NCBI GenBank assembly: GCA_013360465.1
Contig: JABWBO010000012.1
Location: forward strand, 1-64,000
Origin: Anaerolineae bacterium
Lineage (GTDB): Bacteria > Chloroflexota > Anaerolineae > Aggregatilineales > Phototrophicaceae
Length of the DNA: 64,000 nt
Direction: 5' to 3'
Shown piece by piece: positions 30,399-47,430 of this stretch. The notes beneath the pieces were generated by a model. It worked only from the letters and a program-made list of their open reading frames with translations. It made no database searches and was not told the DNA's origin. Numbering within the stretch: position 1 is the stretch's first letter; every line of letters starts with the position of its first letter. A program made the position numbers and the translations under genes.

Positions 30399-33300
30399 TC
30401 AGTTCAACAGGTTTGCGACGAGCTGTACCGTCTCCTGAGCCGGTTCCGCCCCCAGCTCTTCAAGGAAGATGCGCCGCATCTTTTCATAGTGGCTCTTGAT
30501 CTTCTGTTTCTGACCCAGCGCCCGATAGGCGATCATCAGGCTGCGATGCACTTCTTCGCGCAGGGGGTCGATCTTCAGCGCCTGCTGAAACATCTTCGCC
30601 GCCTCGCTGAAGTCGGCGCGCATCTGAGCGCATTCGCCCGCCGTGATCAGCGCTTCCAGGTACAGATCATTCAGGCGTTCACGAGTCTCTTCGATCCAGT
30701 TCGAATACAAGCCGGGCAGGAACTCGCCCTGATACAGCGCAATGGCGCGCCGCCACAGTTCTGCCGTATTGAGTTCGCGCAGCGGTTTGCCGCGTGCTTC
30801 TTTCACGGTGCGCTCGAAAATATGCGCGTCTGACCACAAATCGACATCCGAGTTGATGCCGTATACCTCATCCTGATGCACGATCACGTTCGTGCCGACC
30901 GCCTGCCGGGCACGATGGACGGTGGCATGGAACAGCGCGCGCGTCTTGTCCTCCGACTTATCGGGCCAGAATTCCAGGCAGATGTCTTCGCGCCGCCGCG
31001 CCCCTTCGAACAGCAGGTAAAGGAAGACTTCGCGCGCCGCCGCCGACCGCCACTCCGTCGCCAGCACCAGAGTGCTGTCGCGTTCGAAGATCTCCTTACC
31101 CATCGTCTGAACGCGCAGGCTGTAGGTGCGGATTCCGCCGCTTTCACGCTGGTCGTTCAGCGCGATGATGTTGGCGGGGTGAATCTGCGCCTTGCGCAGC
31201 CGGCGCACCGCCTGGGTGAGTGCCGTAAAGCGAGCGCCGGCATTGGCGAAATGTGCCGCAGCCAGCGAGGAGAAAGCCAGTTCGGCTATCGCCGTCTGGA
31301 CCATCTGCTTCTCTTCGAGATGCCTGGTAATTGCGCTCAGCGCGCTGTCGGCAGCGGCGATCTCACCGCTGACCAGGCATACCTGGGCATGTACCGCTAG
31401 AGCGTGCGCCAGTTCCGTCGGAGCCTGAAGTGTGCGCAGTCGGTCCAGATGACCGGCGATTTCGCCGAGCGCCTCGTTGCTGCGCGCGGTCTGCGCCATC
31501 ACGGCGCAGCGCGACACTCTGGCAACCGTGACTTCCAGATGCAGATCGTGCGCTGTGGCAATGGCTTCGGCTTCCACAAGCAGCTGTTCGGCATCGTCGC
31601 ACTGATCCTGCCAGCGCCGCAGCCACGACAGCCCGATCAGAACGTTGACCCGAATATACGGCTCGCTGCTCCCGGCGAGTTCTATGGCGCGGTTGTACAG
31701 GCTGACCGCCTCTTCGAACGCGCCCCGGTCCCGCTGGAGGTCGGCATACGTCCAGGAAAGATAGGCTTCGATACGCCGGTCTGTGCGGGCGGCGATACGC
31801 AGCCCTTCCTGGATGTGATTCTGCGCTTCGTCGAAATCACCGCATAGATAAAGGAAGTGTCCCAGGTTGTTCAGTGCCTGCGCCAGCGCCACCTGCCCCC
31901 CGAGTTCGCGGCGCAGCGTCACCACCGTCTGAAGACAATCTGCCGCATCCTGGATGCGCCCCACCTGGCGGTAGGCGACATCGAGGTCCATCAGCAGTTT
32001 GGTCAGGGCGAATCGATCGCTGTGGGCTTCGTAGAGCGGTCGCGCCGCCTCAAGATCGCGCAGCGCCTCGTCGGCGAGACCCAGACGCAGCTTGGCGAAA
32101 CCCATCAGGCGCAGCGCCGCCGCGTTCAAGTGCGGCAGGTCGCCTGTCTGTGCGAATACGGTCTCGGCGCTGCGAATCGCCGTCAAATGCTCACCGCGCT
32201 GCATATCGAGATGACCGCGCAGCAGCAGGACCCGCACCACTCCCTCAATATTCGCCTGCTCCTCGAAACGGCGCTCCGCCTGGTTCAGGTTCGCCCTCGC
32301 CTGATCGTAGTCCAGGCGCTCGACATCGAGGACCGCGCATAGATACAGCAGCCATCCGCAGAACACGCCGTGCTGCGTCAGGTCGGCGTTCCAGCGCTGA
32401 AGCGTCTCCATCTTCCCCTGATCGTAGTAGGTTCGCGCGTAAAGCTCGATCAGCCGGACGGCATCGTCAAAATATCCGCCGGCGATATACTGCTGGACCG
32501 CTTCATCGACGAAGTGGTGATCCTCGTACCAGCGCGCTGACTCGATGTGATGCGTCCGATACTGGGCAGGATCGCGCTGGAAGTATTCACGCTGGAGGTA
32601 TTCACGGAAGAGTCCGTGATACATCATGCCGCCTGGAACTGGCATGACGAACAGATTGCGATCCGCCACTTCTTGCAGCAGCGCCATCGCATTTGGCAGG
32701 CGCAGCGCTTCGATCAGCAGTTCGGGCTGCATACGTGTCACCGTCGAAGATGCCAGCAGAAAATCGCGGATCATCGGCGTCTGCGCGCTGACCATGTTGC
32801 GCGCCAGCGCGTCGAACAGCGTTTCCGGCGACCCTACGCCGAAGATCGTGCTGTCGGTGAATTCAGCATTGAGCGGTTGAAACACCAGCATCAGCCCGGT
32901 GGGCCACCCTTCCATACGCTTGACAAGCGCATCGACATCTCGGCGCGCCGCCAGCGGAATGCCGCCGATCACCTGCGCCAGATGCTCCACCTCGTCGGGG
33001 ACAAAGCGCAGCGACTGAGCGCCCAGAGGCAGCACTTCGTGACGGGCGATCATTTCAGGACCGATTACATCCAGCACAACGCGGCTGATCAGGACCAGAT
33101 GACAGTGACGCGGCAGCGCGGCGATGAGCGACGACAGCCATGTTTCAGCCGCCTGCGAGCCGTGCAGATGATGCGCGTCATCGATGAAGTAGATGATGTC
33201 ACGCCCGCCCTGCGCACGCAGATAGTCGCTCAGGCTGTTGGTCAGTTCGACGATAGAAAGACCGGGGGTCGGTTCACGAACCGACACATCGACATAGGTC

Positions 33301-33557
33301 TCGCCCAGGGCGGCGAGCGCCTGAAAGTGCAGGTTGTAGACATCGCGCTGCGTTTCGTCCACGACATGCCAGACGACACTGGCGTGGGTTTGCGCGGCGA
33401 ATTGCAGGGCGAGCGTGGTCTTGCCATATCCCGGCGGCGCGCAGAGGAAGGTGAGCCGATGCTCCAGGATGCGGTCGAGCTGTTCGAGCAGGCGTGGGCG
33501 CTCAATGAGATTGGGAGATCCTCGCCCGGTGATGCGCTGCACAATATCCGGTATCAT
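30399..33557 (-). CDS. MalT-like AAA/STAND ATPase - TPR - winged-helix/BTAD (SARP-type) transcriptional regulator
   Basis: P-loop FLCAPPGYGKTTLALQFA; VIYFIDDAHHL-like Walker B (IIYFIDDAHHL); TPR region; C-terminal EVFLYLLFEGARRREDICLEFWPDKSEDKTRALFHATVHRARQAVG then LYQGEFLPGLYSNWIEETRERLNDLYLEAL. Confidence 0.9.
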   Translation of the reverse strand: MIPDIVQRITGRGSPNLIERPRLLEQLDRILEHRLTFLCAPPGYGKTTLALQFAAQTHASVVWHVVDETQRDVYNLHFQALAALGETYVDVSVREPTPGLSIVELTNSLSDYLRAQGGRDIIYFIDDAHHLHGSQAAETWLSSLIAALPRHCHLVLISRVVLDVIGPEMIARHEVLPLGAQSLRFVPDEVEHLAQVIGGIPLAARRDVDALVKRMEGWPTGLMLVFQPLNAEFTDSTIFGVGSPETLFDALARNMVSAQTPMIRDFLLASSTVTRMQPELLIEALRLPNAMALLQEVADRNLFVMPVPGGMMYHGLFREYLQREYFQRDPAQYRTHHIESARWYEDHHFVDEAVQQYIAGGYFDDAVRLIELYARTYYDQGKMETLQRWNADLTQHGVFCGWLLYLCAVLDVERLDYDQARANLNQAERRFEEQANIEGVVRVLLLRGHLDMQRGEHLTAIRSAETVFAQTGDLPHLNAAALRLMGFAKLRLGLADEALRDLEAARPLYEAHSDRFALTKLLMDLDVAYRQVGRIQDAADCLQTVVTLRRELGGQVALAQALNNLGHFLYLCGDFDEAQNHIQEGLRIAARTDRRIEAYLSWTYADLQRDRGAFEEAVSLYNRAIELAGSSEPYIRVNVLIGLSWLRRWQDQCDDAEQLLVEAEAIATAHDLHLEVTVARVSRCAVMAQTARSNEALGEIAGHLDRLRTLQAPTELAHALAVHAQVCLVSGEIAAADSALSAITRHLEEKQMVQTAIAELAFSSLAAAHFANAGARFTALTQAVRRLRKAQIHPANIIALNDQRESGGIRTYSLRVQTMGKEIFERDSTLVLATEWRSAAAREVFLYLLFEGARRREDICLEFWPDKSEDKTRALFHATVHRARQAVGTNVIVHQDEVYGINSDVDLWSDAHIFERTVKEARGKPLRELNTAELWRRAIALYQGEFLPGLYSNWIEETRERLNDLYLEALITAGECAQMRADFSEAAKMFQQALKIDPLREEVHRSLMIAYRALGQKQKIKSHYEKMRRIFLEELGAEPAQETVQLVANLLN

Positions 33558-40262: not shown

Positions 40263-43200
40263 TCACTCGCCCGCCAGACTGCTGAAGAAGTTGGCGCAGG
40301 TGATGCGTTCGCTGGTCGCCATCGCCTCAAATTCCTCGCCCAGGTCCATCGCCAGCGCGGCGTTCAGGTCGGCGGTTCCCTGCTCTATCGCCCCCTGCGC
40401 AGCGCGCGATTCGGCGCGCAGGACCAACAGCACAGGATGCCCTGGCTCGATCTCCAGCCCACTGGTGTATGCCACCTCCGCCTGGGCGTGATCGCCCAGG
40501 CTGCAATAGGCAAGCCCTTCCAGCAGGTAGAGATCGGCGAGATCGGCGCGCAGACTCAGGGCGCGCTGAACATCGGCGATGACGCTGTCGTACTGTCCGA
40601 GGATCAGGTTGGTGTAAGCGGCGAAGAACGGTCCCCAGATGATGGCATCATCCTGCCCGTAAAGCGCCTGTAAGGTGCGGTTGGCGAACGCGGGATCGGG
40701 GAATTCGCGAAGTACGGTGCGCATCAAGGCGCGGGCGTCGCTGATGCGTCCGTCGCGCATGGCGATCAGCGTCGCAAACGGATAAGGGAAATTGGCGTTC
40801 GGTTTAAGGGCAATCGAGGAGTCCAGATCGCGCCGCGCTGCTGCATAATCGCCGGTCAGATAGTGGAGCGCGCCGCGATAGTTGAGCGGGAACCAATCCT
40901 CCGGGCGACCAGCGACGATGCGATCGTAGGCGGCGACGGCGGACGGGTAGTCGCGCGTATAGGTCGCCGTGTTGGCGATCAGATAGTAGGGCTGAAGCCA
41001 ACTTTCCGGCGCAAGGCGCTGCGCCGTCCCCAGGTCCTGCGCCGACCCGGCAAAATCACCGATGCGCTGGCGCGCCAGCGCCCGGAACAGATAGAGGAGG
41101 GGGTTGCCGCCTTCCAGGGCAATCGCCGCGTCGAGCGTCTGCACGGCTTCCGGCGCGGCGGCGCTGAATCGCTCCAGCGCCCGGTGCGCCAGCGCGGCAG
41201 TTCCGCTGCCCACAACTTCGCCTGAAGGCATCGCCAGTTCATTGAGGATGGTCATCGTGCGCAGCAGCTCGTAGCCGTCGCCATCGGCATTGTGCAGCAG
41301 GATCAGCGCGGTCAGCACCTGAGGCGCGGTCGTTTGGACGCGCTCGTCGGTCAGGCGCACCCGTACGTTCGCCAGTTGATCGATGATCGCACGGTCAAAC
41401 GGGTTGTGCGAGAACGATTCCAGCGAACCCGTCTGGACCGTCAGATCGACCAGATCGTCGCTGTAGTTCCCCCAGATCACCACCGTCGCGCCGACTTCTT
41501 CGGCGCGTGCCAGCGCCTCTTCCGATGAAGTGACCACCTGAGGATAGTGGCGCACGCGAATGGGCGAAAACGGCACTTCGACTTCCAGACGCTGAGCCAG
41601 ATCATCCAGCACGAAGCGCGTGGCGTCGCGCGCGCTGGCGCGCAGCGGTTCAAAATCGGCAACCAGCACCATCACCTCGCCATCCCCGACCGGCTGCACC
41701 ACCGGCGCGTTCGCCGGTGGCGCGGGAGCCATGATCTGCGACAATGCCACGCCGACCATCAGCAGCAGAGCGACAGCGAACAGCGCCACCAGCCCCCAAA
41801 CCAGCCGAGAACGCGGACGAGCGACAACGCCAAAGTGTGCCTGAATAGTCTTGACCAGCCGCTGCGCCTGCGCATCCAGCGGTTGATCCTGCTGGATGAC
41901 GAAGGGCATCCGGCTGCGCATCCCTTCCAGAGCGGGCGGCAGCGCTTCGGGCAGCGCTCCGCCGTTGACCAGCACCGGAATGATCAGCATGTCGGGGCGG
42001 CGCAGCCCGGCTTCGATCTGCATACGCATGACATCTTTGGGGTTATCGATTGCCCGTCCTGTCGATGCCGTGCGTCGGTCGCGCGGCATCCCCGCCCAGC
42101 TGGGTCCGATCACCACCAGCATAACGTCAACCGAGCCAACGATATCGTTCGCCAGGACGTAGCGCGATACCGTGCGGTCGGCGATGCGATCCACATCGCG
42201 GACGATGTTGTTTTCACCCAGGATGGCGGCGATCTGGTCATATAGGCGTCCGGCAATTTCGCCGCTGTCCTCACGCCGGTAGGCGATGAACAGGCGCGGT
42301 GTGGTCACCCCGCGCGGCGGAGTCCTCGCTTCGACTGGCGTGCTGACCAGCGAATTCCTCGCGCCGACCACCGTCTCGCCCGTAGGTTCGCGCACTGCCG
42401 TCACCGGGGTGATCGGGGTTGGGGCGAAGCGCGACAGCAGTTGGGTCGCTTCGATCTCGCGCTGTTCCTGATCGACGCGGCGCAGGTGAACCAGAATGCG
42501 CTCCAGTTCGACCCCGATCTCGCGCACGCTGCCGATTCGCTCGTTCGGGTCCTTTGCCAGCAGCGTTTCCAGCAGCGCCGCGATGTCTCCCGGAAGATCG
42601 GGACGATCCAGGCGAGCGTCTGGGACCGGCTTACGCAGGATCGCCGTCAGCATCGCGGCGGCGGTGTTCTCCTGGTAGGCATGATGACCGGTCAGCATCT
42701 CGAAGAGTATCATGCCGAACGACCAGATGTCGCTCTTTTCGCTGTGCGCTTCGCCGGCGCTGACCTCCGGGCTGAGATAGGCTATCGTCCCCAGCAGGCT
42801 GCCGACCTGGGTCAGGAGAGTCTGAGCATCGGCGACATGCGCCACGCCGAAATCGGTCAGGCGCGGCGTGCCATCTTCCGCCAGCAGGACGTTGCCGGGT
42901 TTCAGGTCACGGTGGATAACACCCAGGCGGTGGGTCCGCGTCAGGGCATCCGCCAGATCGAGCGCGATCTGCACCGCTCGTTCGATGGGCAGCGCCCCCT
43001 GCCTGCGGATCAGCCCTGAAAGCGAGCCGCCGCTGACGAACTCCATGACGATGTAATTGCGCCCGTCTTCTTTGAAAGTGTCATAGACGCGCACGATGTT
43101 GGGATGATTGAGCTTGCGCAGCACGACCGCCTCGCGGCAAAAGCGGTCCACCAGGGTGGGGTCCTGAGCGACGACGTGATCCTTGAGGACTTTGATGGCA

Positions 43201-43310
43201 ACGATCTCGCCGGTCTGGCGGTCGCGTCCACGATAAACCTGACCCATGCCCCCTTCGTCGATCAGCTCGATGAGTTCATAGCGGTCGGCGATCAGTCGGT
43301 TTACAGCCAT
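40263..43310 (-). CDS. Ser/Thr protein kinase - TIR domain - TM - TPR protein
   Basis: Kinase: ELIDEGGMGQVYRGRD, AIKVL, HRDLKPGNVLL, TDFGVA; TIR: LFIAYRREDSGEIAGRLYDQI...VDVMLVVIGPSW...MQIEAGLRRPDMLIIPVLV; TM: LVWGLVALFAVALLLMVGVAL; C-terminal TPR repeats. Confidence 0.92.
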   Translation of the reverse strand: MAVNRLIADRYELIELIDEGGMGQVYRGRDRQTGEIVAIKVLKDHVVAQDPTLVDRFCREAVVLRKLNHPNIVRVYDTFKEDGRNYIVMEFVSGGSLSGLIRRQGALPIERAVQIALDLADALTRTHRLGVIHRDLKPGNVLLAEDGTPRLTDFGVAHVADAQTLLTQVGSLLGTIAYLSPEVSAGEAHSEKSDIWSFGMILFEMLTGHHAYQENTAAAMLTAILRKPVPDARLDRPDLPGDIAALLETLLAKDPNERIGSVREIGVELERILVHLRRVDQEQREIEATQLLSRFAPTPITPVTAVREPTGETVVGARNSLVSTPVEARTPPRGVTTPRLFIAYRREDSGEIAGRLYDQIAAILGENNIVRDVDRIADRTVSRYVLANDIVGSVDVMLVVIGPSWAGMPRDRRTASTGRAIDNPKDVMRMQIEAGLRRPDMLIIPVLVNGGALPEALPPALEGMRSRMPFVIQQDQPLDAQAQRLVKTIQAHFGVVARPRSRLVWGLVALFAVALLLMVGVALSQIMAPAPPANAPVVQPVGDGEVMVLVADFEPLRASARDATRFVLDDLAQRLEVEVPFSPIRVRHYPQVVTSSEEALARAEEVGATVVIWGNYSDDLVDLTVQTGSLESFSHNPFDRAIIDQLANVRVRLTDERVQTTAPQVLTALILLHNADGDGYELLRTMTILNELAMPSGEVVGSGTAALAHRALERFSAAAPEAVQTLDAAIALEGGNPLLYLFRALARQRIGDFAGSAQDLGTAQRLAPESWLQPYYLIANTATYTRDYPSAVAAYDRIVAGRPEDWFPLNYRGALHYLTGDYAAARRDLDSSIALKPNANFPYPFATLIAMRDGRISDARALMRTVLREFPDPAFANRTLQALYGQDDAIIWGPFFAAYTNLILGQYDSVIADVQRALSLRADLADLYLLEGLAYCSLGDHAQAEVAYTSGLEIEPGHPVLLVLRAESRAAQGAIEQGTADLNAALAMDLGEEFEAMATSERITCANFFSSLAGE

Positions 43311-43378
43311 CCCAGTCCTCGACGGTGGAACCATTCAAACCCGCATACGATTGTAGCACGACACGCCGGCGCGGCGCT

Positions 43379-45117: not shown

Positions 45118-45267
45118 AATCTTTTCCCTTTTGTCCGCGCAGAAAACAACTTCGCGCTACAATGAGACGCAATAATACCCGATTCCCTGGGAGGGCGGCA
45201 CGTTTCGCCAACGTTTAGAATATGTTACATTCTTTCGAGTTTGAGCCTTGGCGCAGGAGCGGCGCGT

Positions 45268-46080
45268 ATGTTCAGCTTCATCAGACGGTTTTTCGGCATG
45301 AATCAGGACGACGCGCCGCCGACAGCTGCGCTGGAGGCATTCACGGTTTACTTTCCCAACGGGCAGACGCCGCGCGCGGTCAAGACGCCGGCGCGCATTG
45401 ATCCGCAGAGCGTCATCGACGCCCTGGGGCTGGAATCGCCCACGCCGACGATCTTCGTCTCCGGCGGTGCGGGCGGCATGGACCTGGATTCGATGACCAG
45501 CAGCCGCTCGACCATCGAAGACGGCTTAGCCTGGTTCCTTAATGAGTATCAGGTCACGCTCCTCGACGGCGGCACATCAACCGGCGTCATGCAGCTGATC
45601 GGGATTGCCCGGCAGCGAAGGCATTACACCTTTCCGCTGATCGGCGTCGCGCCGGATCAAGTGGTCTGGATGCCAGGTAAAGAGCGCGGCGAAGAGCAGC
45701 TTGCCGATCTCGACGCCTTTCATTCCCATTTCGTCCTGACCGATGGCAGCGACTTCGGCGCGGAATCGGAACTGCTGATCAACCTCGCCTACCGACTTTG
45801 CGGGCGCGGGGCGCGTCCGCGCCTGTGCATCGTGGTCAACGGCGGGCAGATTGTGAAGCGTGAGGTCCACCGCATGTCCACCCGCGAACCGCGCTTTCCT
45901 ATCCTGGTCCTGGAAGGCACCGGACGCTTTGCCGATGAACTGGCTGCCGCCAACCGCTCAAAAGCGACCGACGATCCACTCATTCACGATATACTGAGCA
46001 AAGGCAACGTCCATTTTCTGCACATCAAGGCGGGCGCAGAACCGCTGCGCAACTGGCTGGAAAACTACTGTGGTTTCTGA
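45268..46080 (+). CDS. LSDAT/SLOG-like (TRPM-type prokaryotic) predicted ligand-binding protein
   Basis: TPTIFVSGGAGGMDLD; VTLLDGGTSTGVMQLIGIA; LIGVAP; HFVLTDGSDFGAESELLINLAYRL; PRLCIVVNGGQIVKREV; FPILVLEGTGRFADEL. Confidence 0.7.
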   Translation: MFSFIRRFFGMNQDDAPPTAALEAFTVYFPNGQTPRAVKTPARIDPQSVIDALGLESPTPTIFVSGGAGGMDLDSMTSSRSTIEDGLAWFLNEYQVTLLDGGTSTGVMQLIGIARQRRHYTFPLIGVAPDQVVWMPGKERGEEQLADLDAFHSHFVLTDGSDFGAESELLINLAYRLCGRGARPRLCIVVNGGQIVKREVHRMSTREPRFPILVLEGTGRFADELAAANRSKATDDPLIHDILSKGNVHFLHIKAGAEPLRNWLENYCGF

Positions 46081-46107
46081 CACCGATCATCCAGGATGGA
46101 GAAGTCC

Positions 46108-47430
46108 ATGAGACAATGCCGCTCCGCCCCTTTCGCCCGGTTGATCCTCTCGCTGGTGGTGGTCGTCCTGTTCGCCGCGCTGCCGGCAGGACGTATCGCC
46201 GCGCAGGGCGACCCACCCGCGCAGCCCACCGCCGTCACGGCGCCGCCGGTTGAGACGGTCGAGCCGATTGACCTGGAGGAACTGCGCACGCTGGCAGCCG
46301 TCGTGCGCAGCAACGCCGAGGATGCGGCGCGCTACGCCTCTGATGCCAGCAACTTCCTGAGCCTGTTCGAGGCGTTCAGCGTCGTCATCGCGATTGCCGC
46401 CGCCTCGCTCGGCGTGGTCGGCGTGACTCGTTTGTTCGCCGCGCAGAGCGCCTTGACCGACGCGCGCAAGCGGCTGCTCGAAGAACTGGCGGGGCTGCGC
46501 GCCGATTTCGAACGGCAGATCGAAGAGCGCGAACGGGATCTGCGCGCCCTGGAAGATCAGCTGACGAAGACGCTCGAACTACAGCGGCGGTCAGCGGCGC
46601 AGTCGACGCTGGCGCTCTCGCTCCTGCCGCTGGGCGAACGGCAGTATAAGGCGCAGGATTACAGCGGCGCTGCCGAAACCTACAAGCGCGCGCTGAAGCT
46701 GGACGAGAACAACCCGCTCATCCATTACCGCCTCGGCTACGTCTACGTGCAGAACGGACAGCTTGAGGAAGCCGAGCGCCACTTGATTCGCGCGCTGGAG
46801 ATCGATCCCGAATTCGAGCTGGCGCGGGCGGCGCTCGGCTACGTCTACCGGCGCATCTCCGACAAGCAGCCGGAGGGGCTGGACCACGATCTGCTGATGA
46901 ATCGCGGTGAGCAGTTCCTTCTGGAAGCGCTCAAGGCGCAGCCGCGCCTGGTCGATGAGGATGGCGAATCCTGGTGGGGGTCCCTGGGCGGGCTGTACCG
47001 ACGCCGGGGGCAGGTCGATCAGGCGATTCACGCCTACGAACAGGCGGCGAAAGTCACCCCACACTCCTCCTACCCGTTCAGCAACCTGGCGCTGCTCTAT
47101 ATGGGCAAACACGACCGCGCCGAGATGCTGCGCACCTACAAACGGGTCGAACGGCTGGCGCGCGGCGAGACTCAGGCGGAAGTCGATAACTACTGGGCAT
47201 ATGCCGACCTGCTCACGTCCAGCCTGGCGATGGGCAAGCTGGAACAGGCGGAAGAGGCGCTCACCTCGGTGCTGGATATCGCCCCGACCGAGTCGGATTA
47301 CACGCTCACCCTGCTGATCGACACGCTGGAACGCCTCAGGGTTGCCCTGGGCGGGTCAGACTCTGCGCCGCACATCGATCACTACATCGGGCGCATCCGC
47401 GAGCATCTCAACCGCCGCGCGAAAAGCTGA
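46108..47430 (+). CDS. membrane-anchored coiled-coil TPR protein
   Basis: Signal-like N-terminus LILSLVVVVLFAALPAG, TM AFSVVIAIAAASLGVVGV, coiled coil LLEELAGLRADFERQIEERERDLRALEDQLTKTLELQ, then TPR repeats. Confidence 0.8.
   Translation: MRQCRSAPFARLILSLVVVVLFAALPAGRIAAQGDPPAQPTAVTAPPVETVEPIDLEELRTLAAVVRSNAEDAARYASDASNFLSLFEAFSVVIAIAAASLGVVGVTRLFAAQSALTDARKRLLEELAGLRADFERQIEERERDLRALEDQLTKTLELQRRSAAQSTLALSLLPLGERQYKAQDYSGAAETYKRALKLDENNPLIHYRLGYVYVQNGQLEEAERHLIRALEIDPEFELARAALGYVYRRISDKQPEGLDHDLLMNRGEQFLLEALKAQPRLVDEDGESWWGSLGGLYRRRGQVDQAIHAYEQAAKVTPHSSYPFSNLALLYMGKHDRAEMLRTYKRVERLARGETQAEVDNYWAYADLLTSSLAMGKLEQAEEALTSVLDIAPTESDYTLTLLIDTLERLRVALGGSDSAPHIDHYIGRIREHLNRRAKS

What the first reader, a model, noticed from the sequence alone, without database searches (positions are those of the whole stretch)
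45268..47430. LSDAT/SLOG-like sensor paired with a membrane coiled-coil TPR protein
The first protein has a Rossmann-like pattern typical of LSDAT (TRPM-associated SLOG) domains: VSGGAGGMD, LLDGGTSTGVMQLIG, FVLTDGSDFGAESELLINLAYRL. SLOG families are proposed nucleotide-derived ligand sensors or processors in conflict and signalling systems. The next gene, 27 bp downstream on the same strand, encodes an N-terminal TM, coiled coil and TPR protein that could be the effector or anchor. Together with the nearby kinase-TIR gene this may form a nucleotide-signalling locus.
Basis: partly seen in the sequence, partly recalled or inferred. Interest (0 to 1): 0.7.

Follow-up and report, generated by a model that had tools for sequence, protein, structure and literature searches.

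The report
TRPM-like sensor with membrane TPR partner
Two neighbouring bacterial genes encode a relative of the ligand-sensing domain of animal TRPM ion channels and a membrane-anchored scaffold protein; across one Chloroflexota family they usually sit head-to-head with the DNA-repair gene mutY, suggesting a membrane-bound stress sensor rather than the phage-defence toxin pair first proposed.

Summary
Window 45268-46080 encodes an LSDAT_prok (SLOG) protein (Pfam 147 bits; its AlphaFold model matches TRPM MHR1/2). A gene for a signal-peptide/TM/coiled-coil/TPR protein (B) follows 27 bp downstream. In the window's family, 51 of 98 genomes carry the LSDAT gene, nearly always once. B is directly downstream in 37 of 51, and three genomes carry B-LSDAT fusions. 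New here: the unit is normally divergent from mutY (A/G glycosylase with Nudix tail), in 43/51 by direct adjacency, plus 2 through a fusion. In 10 of 11 genomes with B but no LSDAT, B itself abuts mutY. Other neighbours are scrambled. The window and its sister species are exceptions, with mutY on another contig. In other phyla LSDAT is instead fused to DUF4231/SLATT 2TM domains, and in Verrucomicrobia it can lie near TIR and patatin genes. The nearby kinase gene is not part of the unit, and no defence context was found in this family. Best explanation: a cytosolic nucleotide-derivative sensor docked on a single-pass membrane scaffold, kept next to mutY and probably serving stress physiology. 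Neither ligand nor output is shown. It is a new variant of a known kind.

The parts
45268..46080 (+). gene A: stand-alone LSDAT_prok (SLOG) protein, 270 aa; GGAG at 45256-45259
   Evidence: Pfam PF18171 147 bits; TRPM2 by phmmer and profile; AlphaFold model pLDDT 92 matches TRPM MHR1/2
45268..45297 (+). N-terminal basic-hydrophobic peptide MFSFIRRFFG, similar in form to M-x-x-I/L-R-R-x-F-G of same-genus relatives; possible peripheral membrane contact (inference)
   Evidence: alignment; 8 of 52 related LSDAT ORFs have a predicted N-terminal TM segment instead
45445..46035 (+). LSDAT domain proper
   Evidence: Pfam residues 60-256; genome search
45754..45756 (+). codon of F163, the W/F column aligned to TRPM2 Y295 (adenine clamp)
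   Evidence: 36/36 W or F; alignment to TRPM2; ligand role from PMC6759353
45925..45927 (+). codon of R220, the column aligned to TRPM2 R358 (phosphate contact)
   Evidence: 36/36 R in the family set, 34/39 in the wider set; PMC6759353
46108..47430 (+). gene B: signal peptide / TM / coiled coil / TPR protein, 440 aa from Met 46108 (444 aa from Met 46096)
   Evidence: ORF and sequence; TPR families; homologues
46108..46203 (+). predicted cleavable signal peptide, up to the conserved A36-Q37
   Evidence: hydrophobic N-terminus in all 34 homologues analysed; conserved A36-Q37
46363..46434 (+). predicted single TM helix, with K/R enrichment on its C-terminal side (TPRs cytosolic)
   Evidence: hydropathy 2.2; K/R before/after the TM 29 vs 89 over 34 homologues
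46438..46620 (+). long coiled-coil helix
   Evidence: AlphaFold helix 110-185; charged heptads
46633..47427 (+). TPR superhelix
   Evidence: TPR_11 and others; Foldseek hits TPR superhelices
46948..47007 (+). most conserved patch LVDxDGESWWGSLGGLYRRR
   Evidence: largely invariant in 28 homologues; also kept in genomes without A

Best explanation
A is a cytosolic nucleotide-derivative sensor of the TRPM-MHR1/2 type. It works docked on B, a type-I single-pass membrane protein whose cytosolic coiled coil and TPRs form a scaffold. Ligand closes A's cleft and changes how the A-B assembly holds a further, unidentified partner, probably at B's DGESWWG patch. In relatives the unit lies head-to-head with mutY, so it is most likely co-regulated with oxidative-damage repair and serves stress physiology, not phage defence. 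Shown: the families, the fold, the conserved A-B linkage, the fusions, B's anatomy and the mutY linkage. Inferred: physical A-B binding, a small-molecule ligand, co-regulation, and output through a partner.
For: LSDAT family and TRPM fold. Two of three known TRPM2 ADPR contacts are kept: aromatic 163 in 36/36 and R220 in 36/36. A-B adjacent on the same strand in 37/51. In-frame B-A fusions in G024 and G050, and the 3' part of one in G049. A and B distances co-vary (r 0.67; 0.60 after removing MutY distance). B is predicted N-out/C-in, putting the TPRs in A's compartment. The three B-less genomes of one genus (G020-G022) carry an A with its own N-terminal TM. Elsewhere LSDAT is fused to or paired with 2TM DUF4231/SLATT. 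mutY is divergent next to A in 43/51 and next to B in 10/11 A-less genomes, while the next most conserved neighbour occurs in 7 loci.
Against: TRPM2 R302, whose counterpart is essential for the ADPR response of the choanoflagellate TRPM2, is I/L/M in every family member, so the ligand may not be ADPR. B survives without A and A without B (five genomes), so neither needs the other absolutely. The mutY link is absent in the window's own genome and sister and in 19 genomes of other families of the order. No shared regulatory motif was found in the mutY-A intergenic regions.
Confidence: 0.5

Rival explanations
1. Anti-phage or abortive-infection module: A senses an ADPR-type immune signal (TIR product) and B executes or anchors a toxic response.
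For: SLOG domains in prokaryotic immune systems are implicated in sensing cADPR variants (literature); LSDAT with TIR, patatin and TPR-S genes in Verrucomicrobia; 36 TIR_2 matches in this genome.
Against: Near single-copy retention in 22/24 genera with purifying selection; mutY linkage; no specific PADLOC match for A or B; no TIR gene as conserved neighbour; B has no effector domain and is kept without A.
Confidence: 0.15
2. A is an enzyme (nucleotide N-glycosidase or phosphoribohydrolase like LOG) feeding a nucleotide-salvage or detoxification step beside MutY-Nudix; B only localises it.
For: SLOG superfamily includes LOG enzymes (literature); invariant E166, nearly invariant H152/H154 and GG-T loops; neighbour MutY acts on damaged bases (and general knowledge).
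Against: LOG motif PGGxGTxxE absent from all 36 proteins; closest fold matches are the ligand-binding MHR1/2 of TRPM channels.
Confidence: 0.17
3. A and B are independent housekeeping genes; B is an envelope scaffold with its own job, and gene order is retained only because divergent promoters resist rearrangement.
For: B-only and A-only genomes exist; B's conserved patch is independent of A.
Against: B-A fusions; distance co-variation beyond MutY; genus g22 lacks both in nearly all of its genomes.
Confidence: 0.18

Closest known systems
TRPM2 channel MHR1/2 domain (LSDAT_euk)
   Same: same fold over nearly the whole A protein; aromatic clamp and phosphate-binding Arg aligned and conserved; cytosolic sensor attached to a membrane protein; TRPM2 is an oxidative-stress sensor (literature)
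   Different: no channel domain; the adenosine-ribose Arg (R302) is I/L/M here; partner is a single-pass TPR protein in a separate gene
prokaryotic LSDAT-DUF4231-SLATT_1 fusions (L118 Thiomargarita, L133 Nitrosocosmicus, L122 Verrucomicrobia)
   Same: same LSDAT domain linked to a membrane module
   Different: there the membrane part is a predicted 2TM SLATT effector in the same chain; here no SLATT or DUF4231, but a signal-peptide/TM/coiled-coil/TPR protein
Thoeris ThsA SIR2-SLOG
   Same: a SLOG domain as nucleotide-signal sensor (literature)
   Different: different SLOG clade; no SIR2 domain, no paired TIR; not in a defence context
TPR-S proteins (PF20308)
   Same: TPR protein in SLOG neighbourhoods; weak score 24.1 bits for B
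   Different: below the 27.6-bit cut-off; B has a signal peptide, TM helix and coiled coil

Membership tests
LSDAT_prok (PF18171) | score over the curated Pfam cut-off, full-length domain | tested here: met
   146.8 bits vs 25.4, profile 2-189 of 195
LSDAT_prok (PF18171) | TRPM-MHR1/2-type Rossmann fold | tested here: met
   model pLDDT 92; all 50 listed PDB matches are TRPM channels or TRPM domains, E 1e-15 to 6e-13
TRPM2-type ADPR sensor | aromatic clamp (Y295), phosphate Arg (R358), ribose Arg (R302) | tested here: not met
   Y295 and R358 positions kept (W/F, R); R302 position is I/L/M in all
LSDAT-SLATT two-component or fused effector systems | SLATT or DUF4231 2TM partner | tested here: not met
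   B matches only TPR-type families; DUF4231 pairing exists in another family of the order (L149)
Thoeris | ThsA (SIR2-SLOG) plus ThsB (TIR) gene pair | tested here: not met
   no SIR2 domain in A, no PADLOC match to A, no conserved TIR neighbour
LOG phosphoribohydrolase | PGGxGTxxE motif | tested here: not met
   absent in all 36 proteins
TPR protein | several TPR repeats over cut-off | tested here: met
   TPR_11 85.7 bits, TPR_1 79.8 bits; superhelix model
any SLOG sensor | binds a nucleotide-derived ligand | not testable with these tools
   needs binding assays

The most novel reading that the evidence does not exclude
A bacterial counterpart of TRPM2 logic: a membrane-tethered LSDAT sensor that reads an NAD- or nucleotide-derived metabolite produced under oxidative damage, transcribed from the same divergent control region as mutY, so that oxidative-stress sensing by this domain predates its fusion to a channel in eukaryotes.
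Probability: 0.12. Interest if true: 0.85.

Novelty: new variant of a known kind. Interest (0 to 1): 0.5.

Why it matters
The sensing domain of TRPM channels has bacterial relatives whose job is unknown. Here one sits in a simple, conserved, soluble-plus-scaffold form tied by gene order to oxidative DNA repair. That gives a testable setting for asking what bacterial LSDAT domains sense and whether the TRPM2 oxidative-stress link is older than the channel.

Tried and rejected
Kinase gene 40263-43334 as part of the system: its cluster is present only in the sister genome's locus, and its presumed TIR region has no Pfam or PDB match. Defence system by PADLOC: no match for A, one weak TPR-level match for B. 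LOG enzyme motif: absent. Shared regulatory motif between mutY and A: 7- and 8-mer counts no higher than in shuffled sequences. mutY co-occurrence as the driver: mutY is nearly universal in the family (87/98 over cut-off), so only its position is informative. mutY-LSDAT linkage in other families of the order or other phyla: none found. B's conserved patch as the A-docking site: it is kept in A-less genomes, so it more likely serves another partner. First LSDAT alignment too divergent for the pattern search, solved with a narrower one. Burroughs et al. 2015, the source of the LSDAT name, is not in the library.

Full report
Observation. PF18171 scores 146.8 bits against a cut-off of 25.4. It is the only match in the 5.9-Mb genome. 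A single-sequence search already finds TRPM2 (E 4e-8), and a family profile finds the TRPM channels (E 1e-24 for the best TRPM2 chain). The AlphaFold model (pLDDT 92) matches TRPM MHR1/2 structures, and all 50 listed hits are TRPM entries.

Pocket. Human TRPM2 holds ADPR with Y295, R302 and R358 (PMC6759353). In the choanoflagellate channel the essential residues are F268 and R275, where alanine at either abolishes the ADPR response (PMC11479946); I take these as the counterparts of Y295 and R302. The aligned columns here are W/F (36 of 36), I/L/M (36 of 36) and R (36 of 36). So the clamp and phosphate contacts are kept, but the ribose arginine is not. A nucleotide-like ligand is plausible; ADPR itself is uncertain.

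B. It has a predicted signal peptide ending at a conserved AQ, a low-complexity stretch, a predicted TM helix near residue 90, a long coiled coil and a TPR superhelix. K/R counts before and after the TM helix are 29 and 89 over 34 homologues, which predicts the TPRs in the cytosol with A. The AlphaFold model is weak in the TM region (pLDDT below 50 at 83-113), so topology rests on hydropathy and charge. The most conserved patch is LVDxDGESWWGSLGGLYRRR.

Conservation. In the window's family, 51 of 98 genomes have A, covering 22 of 24 genera, nearly always in one copy; G039 has a second, and G050 and G045 have partial second matches. Genus g22 has A in only one genome. B is on the same strand directly downstream in 37 of 51. 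Of the 51, 46 have a B somewhere; five have none at E 1e-30. Three loci carry B-A fusions: L033, L082, and the 3' part of one in L038. A and B distances co-vary (r 0.67; 0.60 after regressing out MutY). These are pairwise identities, so relatedness is only partly removed.

mutY. Clustering genes around the 51 loci shows MutY (TIGR01084 336 bits, with a Nudix tail matching MutT models) divergent and directly upstream of A. The next most conserved neighbour cluster occurs in 7 loci. By coordinates, A is adjacent to mutY in 43 of 51, always on opposite strands. In two more (G024, G050) the B-A fusion abuts mutY. In three of the remaining six (G025, G049, G097) A lies on a short contig or near a contig end; the exceptions with A on a longer contig are the window's genome, its sister G028, and G036. 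Eleven genomes have B without A; in ten of them B itself is divergent next to mutY, and the eleventh is a 2-kb contig. In 19 genomes from other families of the order, mutY is not adjacent to A or B (comparing). The arrangement therefore looks like a single family-level event retained while surroundings scrambled. Retention of divergent pairs often reflects a shared control region (general knowledge); I found no shared motif.

Wider context. LSDAT_prok is uncommon in the phylum (9 of 301 genomes) and commoner in the order (73 of 154). Other families of the order have a more distant LSDAT without mutY or B alongside. Other phyla carry LSDAT-DUF4231-SLATT_1 fusions, and one genome of the order pairs LSDAT with a separate DUF4231 gene (L149). 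In this family that setting was not seen. In eight of 52 LSDAT ORFs the N-terminus encodes a predicted TM segment, including all three genomes of genus g5, which have no B. The common theme is an LSDAT domain held at a membrane.

Reading. I favour a membrane-docked nucleotide-derivative sensor whose scaffold B has an additional partner, because B and its conserved patch survive loss of A. Ligand, A-B contact, co-regulation with mutY and the output are inferences. A defence role (0.15), an enzymatic role for A (0.17) and unlinked housekeeping roles (0.18) remain open.

Limits. Genomes are mostly metagenome assemblies with anonymous handles; named records are labelled Anaerolineae, Aggregatilineales or Phototrophicales. 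ORF calling around loci was heuristic, and clusters were single-linkage. Synteny counts rest on profile-hit coordinates. That this arrangement is undescribed is judged only from the open-access papers searched here.

Noticed in passing
window 40263-43334 (-): 1023-aa protein: Hanks-type kinase, a TIR-looking middle (about residues 340-490) without Pfam or PDB support, TM, TPR; PADLOC PD-T4-6 match covers only the kinase.
   Followed up: partly
whole genome G000: 36 TIR_2 (PF13676) matches, none on the window's contig.
   Followed up: no
L114, L116, L119 (Verrucomicrobia): LSDAT gene near TIR, patatin, M15 peptidase and TPR-S genes; looks like a conflict locus (L114 and L116 scanned).
   Followed up: partly
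L118, L122, L133, L120, L130, L139: LSDAT followed in one chain by C-terminal membrane segments; DUF4231 and SLATT_1 confirmed by Pfam in L118, L122 and L133.
   Followed up: partly
L128: Gemmatimonadetes contig with two LSDAT genes in tandem, the second carrying C-terminal membrane segments.
   Followed up: no
window 30402-33557 (-): AAA/TPR/BTAD protein, probably a regulator.
   Followed up: no
L057, L077, L081 (genus g5): LSDAT proteins with a predicted N-terminal TM segment in genomes that lack B.
   Followed up: yes
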